In this document: piece by piece, positions 31,824 through 36,591 of the stretch | How the letters are laid out: every line of letters begins with the position of its first letter | How positions within the stretch are numbered: the first letter of the stretch is position 1 | Assembly: GCA_035260325.1 (NCBI GenBank) | Contig: DATFVL010000030.1 | Span: forward strand, 1 to 40,239 | Direction: 5' to 3' | From: Candidatus Methylomirabilota bacterium | Lineage (GTDB): Bacteria; Methylomirabilota; Methylomirabilia; Rokubacteriales; CSP1-6 | DNA: 40,239 nucleotides | The notes under the pieces: model-generated | What the model was told of the DNA's origin: nothing | Databases searched by the model: none | Seen by the model: the letters and a program-made list of their open reading frames with translations, nothing else | Program-made: the position numbers and the translations under genes

Positions 31824-32621
31824 CTACTTCTTCCCCGACGCGACCAGCGCGTCGGTCGGCATCTCGAGCCCGCCGCGGGACGCGAACCGCTCGAGCCGCG
31901 CGCGGACCGCGTCTCGCACGGCGCGCCGCGCGTCCTCGGCGAGCTCGCGCAGCATCAGGCCGAAGCGGATCCCGCCCGACGCGACCTGATCCCAATAGGC
32001 GTCGAACGAGTCGAAGACGAAGCTCCGCGTCTCCGTGGTCACGCCCACGTCCCGGAACCCGGCCTCCCCCAGCAGGCGCTCGAGCCGGCCGGGCTCGCCC
32101 AGGCTCGTGCCACGAAGAATCTCGTCGCGGCGGTCCGGGAAGCGTTCGAGGAGTGCCCACGCCAGCGCGCCACCCCACGGGACCCGGTCGGCGGTGGACC
32201 AGACGACCGCCGCGAAGCCGCCGCCGGGGCGGAGCACGCGCCGCGCCTCGCGGAGTCCCGCGAGCGGGTCGGGGAAGAACATGAGGCCGAGCTGGCAGAT
32301 GACCGCGTCGAAGGCCTCGGCCCGGCACGCGAGGGCCTGGCCGTCCATCGCGGCGAGGCGGATCGGCCGCGCGCCGACCTTCGCGAGGGCGCCGCGCAGC
32401 ATCGGCAGCGAGAGATCGGCGCCGACGAGGCGACCCCGGGGACCGAGAGCGTCGGCGGCCATCAGCGCCGACTCGCCCGTGCCCGTCGCCAGATCGAGGA
32501 CGCGCTGGCCGGGCTCGAGCCTCGCCGCGCGCAGGAGCGCCGGCACGTAGAGACGCGTCCAGCGCCCCATGAAGCCGTCGTAGGCGGCGGCGACCTTGTC
32601 GAACGTGATCTGGGCGCTCAC
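31824..32621 (-). CDS. class I SAM-dependent methyltransferase
   Basis: A 265-residue UbiE/COQ5-like methyltransferase. Motif I is RVLDLATGTGES (residues 40-51), followed by the acidic VGADLSLPML and the post-motif CQLGLMFFPDPLAGLREARR with VLRPGG. The C-terminal third (about 180-265) is a substrate-side domain. GTG 32621 overlaps the stop of the membrane/TPR gene by four bases (GTGA). It is the last gene of a minus-strand coupled operon. The methyl acceptor is unknown. Confidence 0.88.
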   Translation of the reverse strand: MSAQITFDKVAAAYDGFMGRWTRLYVPALLRAARLEPGQRVLDLATGTGESALMAADALGPRGRLVGADLSLPMLRGALAKVGARPIRLAAMDGQALACRAEAFDAVICQLGLMFFPDPLAGLREARRVLRPGGGFAAVVWSTADRVPWGGALAWALLERFPDRRDEILRGTSLGEPGRLERLLGEAGFRDVGVTTETRSFVFDSFDAYWDQVASGGIRFGLMLRELAEDARRAVRDAVRARLERFASRGGLEMPTDALVASGKK

Positions 32622-34072
32622 GGCGTCGGCGGCCCGCCGGTGATCTGCTGCTTGACCTTGCATGCCTGGGCGACACCGAGGTCGCAGGCGCGCGTGAGGT
32701 CGGCGAGCATGTTCTCCCGGTCGCGGAGCCGCGCGTGGTTCCACGCGCGGTTGAGGTAGGCCTCGCCGTTCTTCGGGTCCAGCTCGAGGAGCTTCGTGAG
32801 CGCGGCGACACTCTCGGCGTGCCGGCCGAGCTGCGCCTGGGCCCAGGCGAGCCGGCGGTACGCGTCCCCGTTGCGGGCATCGGCCTCGACCTGCGCCGCG
32901 TAGATCCTGACGAGCTCGGCGCTGGCGAGCGGACGGATGGTGACGACCCACTCGTGGCCGAGCTGGCCGGCGCGCGTCGTCACCTCGACGGGCTGGCGGG
33001 GCTCGAGCCGCTCGTAGAGGCCGGCGCCCACCCGGAGCTCCTCGGTCTCGTCCTCCGGGCGCCAGGACTCGACCGTGACGTAGCGGTCCGTGCCGCTCTT
33101 GCCGTGGCTCACGCGCCTGCTCAGGACGACCGTCGTCCTGGCCACGGGGGGCGAGGCGTCGAGCCACCCGTTCGCCCCGACCACGAGGCCGTGCCCGCCC
33201 AGCAGCGCGCCGACGAGCGCGACGAGCGACCACGGGAGGAGCTTCCGGTGGGCGCCGGACGTGCCCCAGACGCTCTTCGCCATGAAGAGCACGATCGCCC
33301 CGAAGAGGAAGGTGGAGAGCTTCAGCGAGTCGACCCACGCGGCGCTGTCGTTCACGAGGGGGAAGCGCCAGATCGCGTAGAAGAAGAGCCCGACCCCGCC
33401 CACGCCGGTGAGGCCGCCGACCACCGCGCAGGCGAGGCCACCGCGCGCGACGGCGCGCTCCACGGGGGGCGGAAGCTCGCCGGCGTGGGCGGCGAGGTTC
33501 CGGACCAGCGCCCCGAGGCGCTCCGCGGCCGTCGTCACGGCGGCAGGCGTCGGCGGCCGCCGCAGATCGAGCGCCCACTCGATGCGGAGCACGCCGGCAC
33601 GCTGCCGGATCCGGTTCGCGCCGAGCCCGAACATCTCGCGGACGGCGGCGCGGCGCCCGGCGTCGTCGAGGAGCTCACGCACGAACGCCGGCGAGTCGCT
33701 CTCGATGTAGACCTCGCGGTCGAACGCGGCGTCGCCCGTCTGGATCTCGCGCGCGCGGCCCGTGCCCTTGAAGATGCGGTCGGAGGCGGCCTCACGCGTG
33801 AGCGTGAACGCCTCCGGCGAGCCCGTGGCCGCGAGCACCGCCAGGGTCGACGGCGCGCCGCCGGCCTGCGTGTAGAGACAGTGGAACGTCAGCCCCTGCC
33901 TGGAGACGGGGAGCGGCTTGCCCGGCTCGAGCGGGCCGAGCTCGCGCGCGAACGCGTCGAGGAAGGCGCGCCGGGCGCGCTCACGCAGCTGCGACCGGAG
34001 GACCACGAGGCCCAGCAGCGCGAGGAGACCGGAGATCAGGAACGCATAGAGAAAGCTCTGCTCGCTGATCAC
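32618..34072 (-). CDS. membrane protein with C-terminal TPR repeats
   Basis: A 484-residue protein with an N-terminal transmembrane helix (LYAFLISGLLALLGLVVL), a soluble region of about 170 residues, three further hydrophobic segments (GLACAVVGGLTGVGGVGLFF, KLSTFLFGAIVLFMAKSV, SLVALVGALLGGHGLVVG), a DUF3592-like beta region (RYVTVESW ... ELRVGAG) and two TPR-type repeats (DAYRRLAWAQAQLGRHAESV, EAYLNRAWNHARLRDRENML). GTG 34072 overlaps the stop of the metallohydrolase-receiver gene (GTGA). The function is unknown; TPRs suggest it docks a partner at the membrane, possibly the receiver protein. Confidence 0.8.
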   Translation of the reverse strand: MISEQSFLYAFLISGLLALLGLVVLRSQLRERARRAFLDAFARELGPLEPGKPLPVSRQGLTFHCLYTQAGGAPSTLAVLAATGSPEAFTLTREAASDRIFKGTGRAREIQTGDAAFDREVYIESDSPAFVRELLDDAGRRAAVREMFGLGANRIRQRAGVLRIEWALDLRRPPTPAAVTTAAERLGALVRNLAAHAGELPPPVERAVARGGLACAVVGGLTGVGGVGLFFYAIWRFPLVNDSAAWVDSLKLSTFLFGAIVLFMAKSVWGTSGAHRKLLPWSLVALVGALLGGHGLVVGANGWLDASPPVARTTVVLSRRVSHGKSGTDRYVTVESWRPEDETEELRVGAGLYERLEPRQPVEVTTRAGQLGHEWVVTIRPLASAELVRIYAAQVEADARNGDAYRRLAWAQAQLGRHAESVAALTKLLELDPKNGEAYLNRAWNHARLRDRENMLADLTRACDLGVAQACKVKQQITGGPPTP

Positions 34073-35389: not shown

Positions 35390-35458
35390 TCAGCCGAGCC
35401 CCTCCAGCGTCGCCCGGCAGAAGTCCTTGCTCGTCGCGGTACCGCCCTGGTCGCTCAT
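35390..35458 (-). CDS. 22-codon ORF coupled between amidohydrolase and metallohydrolase-receiver genes
   Basis: ATG 35458 overlaps the amidohydrolase stop (ATGA) and the frame MSDQGGTATSKDFCRATLEG then LG ends one base before the next ATG. The exact tiling suggests it is translated as a coupling leader or is the remnant of a larger gene. No signal or domain is visible. Confidence 0.4.
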   Translation of the reverse strand: MSDQGGTATSKDFCRATLEGLG

Positions 35459-36591
35459 CCGTCGAGCCGGTAGACGCGGCGCACGTTCTCCCAGAGCATC
35501 TTCCGCTGGATCGCCGGGTCCACGCCGCGGAACTGCTCCTCGATCGCCTTCTGCGAGAAGGGCCAGGTGCCGTCGCGATGCGGGTAGTCCGAGCCCCACA
35601 TGACATTGTCGGGCGCAATCGCCGCCATGGCGCGCACGCCGTGGAAGTCCTTCTGGAAGGTCGCGTACATCTGGCGCTTGAAGTAGGCGCTCGGCGCCAG
35701 CGGGAGCCGGAGGTCGTCGGCCAGGCGCTCCTCGTACGTGTCGTCGAGGCGCTCGAGGATGTAGGGGATCCAGCCGATGCCGCTCTCGCCGAGGACGAGC
35801 CGGAGCCGCGGGTGGCGCTCGCAGACGCCCGCGAGGATCACGCTGACGCAGATCTCGTCCATCTGCAGCGGCGCGACGACCGTCCACGAGCCGACGACCG
35901 CCGGATGGCGCACGCCCTTCACCTCGTAGCCCACCGTGGCGCCGCCGCCCTCGAAGACGTGGAACGAGACGACGAGCCCCGTCTCCTCCGCGGCCGCCCA
36001 GAGGGGCTCCCACATCTCATGCCACACGGGCATCGCGGACCCCCAGGGCACGAACACGGCGCCGCGCAGGCCGAGCGTGGCGCAGTGACGCAGCTCCTCG
36101 GCCGCGAGCTTCCCGTCGTGGTTGGGCAGGCAGCCGAGGCCGTAGTAACGGCCGGGCTGGGTCGCGTTGAACCCGGCGATGTACTGGTTGTACGCGTGGT
36201 AGACCGCCGCGAGCGTCTCGTGGTCGGCGATGCCGCCGACGCCGAAGAGTCCCCGCGAGATGCCGATGATCCCGTAGATCATCTCGGCCTCGACGCCGTC
36301 GCGCGCCTGGTCCTCGCGGCGCTCGACGGGATTCGACGGCCGCGTCTGCTTGCCGGTGGCGAAGCCCGCGTCGGCGAGGATGCGTCCGCGCTTGCCCCCC
36401 GTCACGCCCGGGCCATATACCCCGTACGGTCCGAGGGTCGAGTCGCGCGAGACCCACCACTTGCGCCCGTCGCGCTCGACGACGTGCGGCGCGGCGTCGC
36501 CCCACGTCCGGTCCATGCGCGACGTGAAGGTGTCGGGCGGCAGGTAGATCAGGTCCATGTGGCTATCGGCCGACATCACTCGAAGCGCCAT
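35455..36591 (-). CDS. amidohydrolase-2 family protein
   Basis: A 378-residue TIM-barrel metal-dependent hydrolase related to ACMSD and gamma-resorcylate decarboxylases. The first metal motif is SADSHMDLIYLPP (His plus Asp, in place of the usual H-x-H or H-x-x-E), then a His in VVSFHVFEGG and the catalytic Asp in WGSDYPHRDGTWPF. These suggest decarboxylation or hydrolysis of a carboxylic ring compound; the substrate is unknown. ATG 36591 has GGAGGAGG upstream. It leads the coupled minus-strand operon that continues through the receiver fusion to the methyltransferase. Confidence 0.88.
   Translation of the reverse strand: MALRVMSADSHMDLIYLPPDTFTSRMDRTWGDAAPHVVERDGRKWWVSRDSTLGPYGVYGPGVTGGKRGRILADAGFATGKQTRPSNPVERREDQARDGVEAEMIYGIIGISRGLFGVGGIADHETLAAVYHAYNQYIAGFNATQPGRYYGLGCLPNHDGKLAAEELRHCATLGLRGAVFVPWGSAMPVWHEMWEPLWAAAEETGLVVSFHVFEGGGATVGYEVKGVRHPAVVGSWTVVAPLQMDEICVSVILAGVCERHPRLRLVLGESGIGWIPYILERLDDTYEERLADDLRLPLAPSAYFKRQMYATFQKDFHGVRAMAAIAPDNVMWGSDYPHRDGTWPFSQKAIEEQFRGVDPAIQRKMLWENVRRVYRLDG

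What the first reader, a model, noticed from the sequence alone, without database searches (positions are those of the whole stretch)
31824..36591. Five-gene coupled operon built around a receiver-fused metallohydrolase
Amidohydrolase, 22-codon ORF, MBL-REC fusion, membrane/TPR protein and methyltransferase are on one strand with ATGA or GTGA overlaps (35455, 34069, 32618) or a one-base gap (35389). The receiver keeps its Asp, Thr and Lys and the hydrolase keeps its metal motif, yet no kinase or DNA-binding domain is encoded. This suggests an enzyme whose hydrolase activity, possibly on a cyclic nucleotide, is switched by phosphorylation and anchored through the TPR membrane protein. That model is inference.
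Basis: partly seen in the sequence, partly recalled or inferred. Interest (0 to 1): 0.7.

Follow-up and report, generated by a model that had tools for sequence, protein, structure and literature searches.

The report
Phosphorylation-switched hydrolase in mosaic operon
The five adjacent genes are real but are a patchwork unique to this genome (the tiny one is the leftover tail of a deleted dehydrogenase gene), while the central gene belongs to an undescribed bacterial family of zinc-type hydrolases with a signalling switch attached, often encoded beside the sensor kinases that would flip it.

Summary
Coordinates, overlaps and domains are confirmed. The operon reading is not. Among phylum relatives the TPR membrane gene occurs only here (0 of 94 genomes with a full-length homologue). 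The closest relative, same genus, has amidohydrolase–Iso_dh–methyltransferase with no MBL-REC and no TPR. The 22-codon ORF is the last 20 codons of that Iso_dh (isocitrate/isopropylmalate dehydrogenase-like) gene: a deletion scar, 83% nucleotide identity. Only amidohydrolase–(Iso_dh or scar)–MBL-REC recurs, in five relatives.

The MBL-REC fusion is the real finding. All 48 relatives (Rokubacteria, Acidobacteriota) keep the metal ligands. All 27 stand-alone fusions keep the full receiver phosphorylation site. In 18 longer relatives, most with cNMP-binding and GGDEF domains (one in this genome), the receiver is degenerate. Stand-alone fusions lie beside histidine kinases in 12 of 19 testable non-window loci (6/13 Rokubacteria, 6/6 Acidobacteriota, on opposite sides). 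The predicted fold is nearest RNase Z and YhfI; YhfI is a cAMP/cGMP phosphodiesterase. So phosphorylation-gated hydrolysis of a phosphodiester, possibly a cyclic nucleotide, is well supported as a family hypothesis. TPR anchoring is not. Substrate, kinase and switching remain untested. New variant of a known kind (response regulator with enzymatic output).

The parts
35455..36591 (-). Amidohydrolase (Amidohydro_2), 378 aa
   Evidence: Pfam; orthologues 73-92% identical in 24 other genomes of the family
35390..35458 (-). 22-codon ORF = in-frame deletion scar: start codon from the amidohydrolase ATGA plus the last 20 codons of an Iso_dh gene (DQGGTATSKDFCRATLEGLG*). It carries a GGAGG motif upstream of MBL-REC and ends one base before its ATG
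   Evidence: 52/63 nt and 15/20 aa identical to the tail of intact Iso_dh in G001; alignment score 85 against a maximum of 43 in 2000 shuffles; PF00180 8e-83 for the intact gene
34069..35388 (-). MBL-REC fusion, 439 aa; MBL about residues 1-295, variable linker 296-315, receiver 316-437
   Evidence: Pfam; residues; AlphaFold model; dN/dS about 0.26-0.33 (MBL) and 0.34-0.41 (REC), near 1 for much of the linker
34489..35388 (-). MBL domain with ligands H68 H70 D72 H73 H150 D171 H252, all invariant in 48 relatives
   Evidence: sequence hits to RNase Z and fold hits to RNase Z and YhfI
34072..34443 (-). Receiver domain; phosphoacceptor D366, acidic pair D322/D323, T396, K418
32618..34072 (-). Membrane protein, 484 aa: predicted TM segments about 5-29, 212-235, 247-268, 278-301; C-terminal TPRs about 403-464
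   Evidence: Pfam; hydropathy; no full-length homologue in 94 other phylum genomes
31824..32621 (-). Class I SAM methyltransferase (Methyltransf_25/UbiE-like), 265 aa
   Evidence: Pfam; syntenic orthologue (73%) between Iso_dh and the alpha/beta hydrolase gene in G001

Best explanation
The locus is an operon-like mosaic. Between the amidohydrolase and the convergent alpha/beta-hydrolase gene, relatives carry different inserts. Here an Iso_dh gene was lost except for its last 20 codons (the 22-codon ORF), and MBL-REC and a lineage-specific TPR membrane gene lie ahead of the methyltransferase. The coherent functional unit is the MBL-REC protein alone: a response regulator whose output is a binuclear-metal MBL hydrolase of the RNase Z/YhfI type. 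Proposed mechanism: a histidine kinase or phosphotransfer protein, encoded elsewhere in this genome, phosphorylates D366; the receiver then changes the activity of the MBL domain toward a phosphodiester, most likely a small nucleotide signal. Shown: domains, intact active sites, purifying selection on both domains, kinase adjacency in relatives, mosaic history. Inferred: phosphorylation, switching, substrate, kinase identity.
For: Metal ligands invariant in 48/48 and receiver D,D,D,T,K invariant in 27/27 stand-alone fusions, but the acidic pair is lost in 18/18 longer relatives (Fisher 6e-13, not corrected for phylogeny: the longer class forms one main group of 17 plus one separate row). Kinase gene adjacent on the same strand, or two genes away in L203: downstream in Rokubacteria L039, L040, L044, L045, L047, L200; upstream in Acidobacteriota L058-L061, L203, L204, against roughly 0.4-1.3% per locus by chance. 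Fold nearest RNase Z 1y44 and YhfI 6knt. Nucleotide-signalling links: fusion to cNMP_binding and GGDEF, including in this genome; class III cyclases near MBL-REC in L039 and L043; REC-GGDEF-EAL beside it in L203. dN/dS below 0.42 for both domains. Mosaic history.
Against: No kinase lies next to the window's own clade, and the Acidobacterial partner kinase has no orthologue there (only HisKA/HATPase core matches). 6 of 13 testable Rokubacterial stand-alones outside the window clade have no nearby kinase, and a seventh has only a REC-Hpt protein. The MBL superfamily covers many substrates. The class III cyclase neighbours are few and no background rate was measured. The structure model is moderate (pLDDT 79) and the relative placement of the two domains is not established.
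Confidence: 0.55

Rival explanations
1. The five genes are one dedicated pathway in which the TPR protein anchors the phospho-switched hydrolase at the membrane.
For: Overlapping starts and stops suggest co-transcription and translational coupling; the TPR protein has four predicted TM segments and TPRs.
Against: TPR gene absent from 94 other phylum genomes, including all with an orthologous MBL-REC; same-genus G001 has amidohydrolase-Iso_dh-methyltransferase without MBL-REC or TPR; the 22-codon ORF is a scar.
Confidence: 0.07
2. The MBL domain acts on RNA or a tRNA end (RNase Z-like ribonuclease) or on a non-nucleotide ester; the receiver controls RNA decay or a catabolic step linked to the amidohydrolase.
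For: Best PDB sequence match is RNase Z (6e-12) and best fold match is RNase Z 1y44; the only recurrent neighbour in the window clade is a metabolic amidohydrolase.
Against: RNase Z family model scores 76.8 bits against a cut-off of 292.95; relatives associate with cNMP_binding, GGDEF and cyclases.
Confidence: 0.25
3. The receiver is only a phosphate sink or dimerisation platform and hydrolase activity is constitutive; or the MBL domain acts as a sensor (for example of metal or redox state) rather than as an enzyme.
For: Variable, probably flexible linker; some MBL relatives lack the receiver altogether (L062, L206, L207).
Against: Complete conservation of both the phosphorylation pocket and all metal ligands in 27/27 stand-alones, purifying selection on both domains.
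Confidence: 0.13

Closest known systems
PorX, response regulator of the type IX secretion system (PMC11320123)
   Same: Receiver plus a zinc-dependent phosphodiesterase output domain, no DNA-binding domain; dimerises on phosphorylation or zinc binding
   Different: PorX output is an alkaline-phosphatase-superfamily domain behind the receiver; here the output is an N-terminal MBL domain
YhfI of Bacillus subtilis (PDB 6knt/6kns) and Apyc1 class II-type MBL phosphodiesterases (PMC9117128)
   Same: MBL fold, HxHxDH; YhfI is among the best fold matches and prefers cAMP/cGMP
   Different: No receiver domain; 16-18% sequence identity; substrate here unknown
RNase Z (PDB 1y44, 2cbn)
   Same: Best PDB sequence (6e-12) and fold match
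   Different: Far below the RNase Z family cut-off; carries a receiver; relatives located among signalling genes
PleD and REC-EAL / REC-HD-GYP response regulators (from general knowledge; PleD is a receiver match)
   Same: Response regulators whose output is an enzyme of nucleotide second-messenger turnover
   Different: Their output domains are GGDEF, EAL or HD-GYP, not MBL

Membership tests
Two-component response regulator | Receiver fold with acidic pair, phosphoacceptor Asp, Thr/Ser and Lys | tested here: met
   Response_reg 3e-26; D322 D323 D366 T396 K418, invariant in 27/27 stand-alones
Two-component response regulator | Phosphorylated by a histidine kinase | not testable with these tools
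   Only indirect: kinase adjacent in 12 of 19 testable non-window loci; none adjacent in the window clade
MBL-fold metallohydrolase | HxHxDH plus downstream H, D, H metal ligands | tested here: met
   H68 H70 D72 H73 H150 D171 H252 invariant in 48/48; Lactamase_B_2 4e-15
RNase Z | Score above the curated RNase Z family cut-off | tested here: not met
   TIGR02651 76.8 bits against cut-off 292.95
Class II-type cyclic-nucleotide phosphodiesterase | Hydrolyses cyclic nucleotides | not testable with these tools
   Fold similarity to YhfI only
Conserved five-gene operon | Same gene order in related genomes | tested here: not met
   TPR gene only here; G001 lacks MBL-REC and TPR; the 22-codon ORF is a scar
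Known anti-phage defence protein | Informative PADLOC match over the whole protein | tested here: not met
   Only generic partial overlaps: receiver part of SduA model, methyltransferase core of mad2

The most novel reading that the evidence does not exclude
MBL-REC proteins are a distinct enzymatic output class of two-component signalling. A histidine kinase gates an MBL phosphodiesterase that degrades a cyclic nucleotide. In the main Rokubacterial sister branch the receiver has become a pseudo-receiver and control has passed to a fused cNMP sensor, with a GGDEF cyclase in the same chain, making a single-protein node between cNMP and c-di-GMP signalling.
Probability: 0.3. Interest if true: 0.75.

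Novelty: new variant of a known kind. Interest (0 to 1): 0.5.

Why it matters
Few response regulators have enzymatic outputs outside the GGDEF/EAL/HD-GYP and chemotaxis enzymes. A kinase-gated MBL phosphodiesterase family spread over Rokubacteria and Acidobacteriota, dominated by uncultured soil and groundwater lineages, would be another route from two-component sensing to nucleotide signalling. The two branches, one with an intact receiver and one with a pseudo-receiver, make a natural test of what phosphorylation does. The scar series (intact, broken, 22, 14, 10 and 0 codons) also shows how gene death can leave a micro-ORF that reads as a gene.

Tried and rejected
Micro-ORF as a real small protein: rejected, because it aligns to the Iso_dh C-terminus. 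Five-gene conservation: rejected. Orthologue of the Acidobacterial partner kinase in this genome: not found, only kinase-core matches at background level. TPR protein structure: model of low confidence (pLDDT 46), so no fold search was made and no fold is claimed. Literature searches for response regulators with MBL outputs found no description in the held library; the main census of response-regulator output domains is not held, so priority cannot be excluded. PADLOC defence search uninformative.

Full report
OBSERVATION. All coordinates and junctions in the finding are right, and the domain calls hold. The genome is a rokubacterial assembly; the nearest named record among the hits is Candidatus Rokuibacteriota JACPCG010000073 (L055). 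Overlapping start and stop codons are common in bacterial operons (general knowledge) and are not by themselves evidence of joint function.

THE 22-CODON ORF IS A SCAR. In the same-genus relative G001 the amidohydrolase is followed by an intact 356-aa PF00180 gene (isocitrate/isopropylmalate dehydrogenase family) ending ...DQGGTATASEFCKATLEALG*. The window's micro-ORF is MS + DQGGTATSKDFCRATLEGLG*: 15/20 residues and 52/63 bases identical to that tail. In G022:C131 the same gene, split into two frames in the assembly, lies between the amidohydrolase and MBL-REC, and its stop codon is one base from the MBL-REC start. Other relatives keep 10 codons (G038), 14 codons (G025) or none (G004, G047). 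The intact gene is in G001 and G043; it is split into two frames in G022 and G032, which may be assembly error. Genomes with scars have only 37-43% identical paralogues elsewhere. All three surviving scars stay in frame with the ATGA start. Retained translational coupling to MBL-REC would explain this, but three cases are too few to show it.

THE FIVE-GENE ORDER IS NOT CONSERVED. The TPR membrane protein has no full-length homologue in 94 other genomes of the phylum; one weak partial hit is in G017. G001 has amidohydrolase-Iso_dh-methyltransferase, convergent with the alpha/beta hydrolase, without MBL-REC and TPR; its two contigs overlap by 637 bases at 97%. The g4 and g22 genomes have amidohydrolase-(scar or Iso_dh)-MBL-REC without TPR or methyltransferase next to it. 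This gap between two conserved flanks has been filled differently in each lineage.

THE MBL-REC FAMILY. The fusion is a real family in Rokubacteria and some Acidobacteriota; 5 of 297 sampled genomes of the latter phylum have a match at E<=1e-90, and two of those matching genomes have no full-length stand-alone fusion. A tree of the MBL domain (48 rows) gives three main groups: the window clade of five Rokubacteria together with Acidobacterial proteins (100/100); other Rokubacterial stand-alone MBL-RECs; and Rokubacterial long proteins with MBL, a receiver-like region and usually cNMP_binding with or without GGDEF. The third group occurs in many genomes of the family, including this one (G000:C62). 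The grouping of the window clade with Acidobacteriota suggests lateral transfer, but the direction is not shown.

ACTIVE SITES. The seven metal ligands are invariant in 48/48. The receiver's D322, D323, D366, T396 and K418 are invariant in 27/27 stand-alones; the acidic pair is lost in 18/18 long proteins, with Thr changed to Ala in 13 and Asp lost in 5. A receiver that stays intact where no other regulatory domain is attached, and decays where cNMP or GAF-like regions are attached, is what one expects if phosphorylation is the switch in the stand-alone class. The association is strong but rests on few evolutionary events. Both domains are under purifying selection between the window and its orthologues, while the linker is nearly free to change.

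KINASES. Stand-alone MBL-RECs lie beside histidine kinases, mostly hybrids with receiver and Hpt domains: downstream in six Rokubacterial loci (L039, L040, L044, L045, L047, L200) and upstream in six Acidobacterial loci (L058, L059, L060, L061, L203 two genes away, L204). Of testable non-window loci this is 6 of 13 Rokubacteria and 6 of 6 Acidobacteriota, against a chance expectation near 1% per locus. The different position in the two phyla suggests two separate linkages. The window clade has no neighbouring kinase, and the Acidobacterial kinase has no orthologue in it, so the kinase for this protein is unknown.

WHAT THE HYDROLASE ACTS ON. The nearest PDB sequences are RNase Z (6e-12). The AlphaFold model (pLDDT 79) is nearest RNase Z, an ELAC homologue, YhfI and PhnP-family enzymes. 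YhfI prefers cAMP/cGMP (PMC9117128). RNase Z membership fails the curated cut-off. Genomic links point to nucleotide signalling: cNMP_binding and GGDEF fused in cis, CHASE2-cyclase near L043's MBL-REC and a cyclase beyond the kinase in L039, REC-GGDEF-EAL beside L203. A cyclic nucleotide is therefore the leading guess (about 0.4), short of proof.

COMPARISON. The closest working analogue is PorX, a response regulator with a zinc-dependent phosphodiesterase output from a different superfamily (PMC11320123). Searches of the held literature found no description of MBL as a response-regulator output, but the key census (Galperin 2010) is not held. The verdict is a new variant of a known kind.

Noticed in passing
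L053:6597-8957 (G000:C62, this genome): MBL-pseudoreceiver-cNMP_binding-GGDEF protein with intact GGDEF motif; long relatives of this class found in many genomes of the family. It joins a metallohydrolase, a cNMP sensor and a diguanylate cyclase in one chain.
   Followed up: partly
L204:2811-8181, L058:1525-6924: Acidobacteriota carry OmpA-domain protein, Ras-like small GTPase, hybrid histidine kinase and MBL-REC in a row on one strand, a recurrent module of unknown function.
   Followed up: partly
L043:6126-11939: MBL-REC followed by a TPR-CHAT protein and a CHASE2 class III cyclase.
   Followed up: no
L163, L162, L226, L165, window 35390-35458: Graded decay series of an Iso_dh gene between two conserved genes: intact, split in two frames, in-frame scars of 22, 14 and 10 codons, and complete loss.
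   Followed up: yes
L062, L206, L207: Acidobacterial MBL relatives lacking the receiver, nested among MBL-REC proteins in the tree; apparent receiver losses.
   Followed up: no
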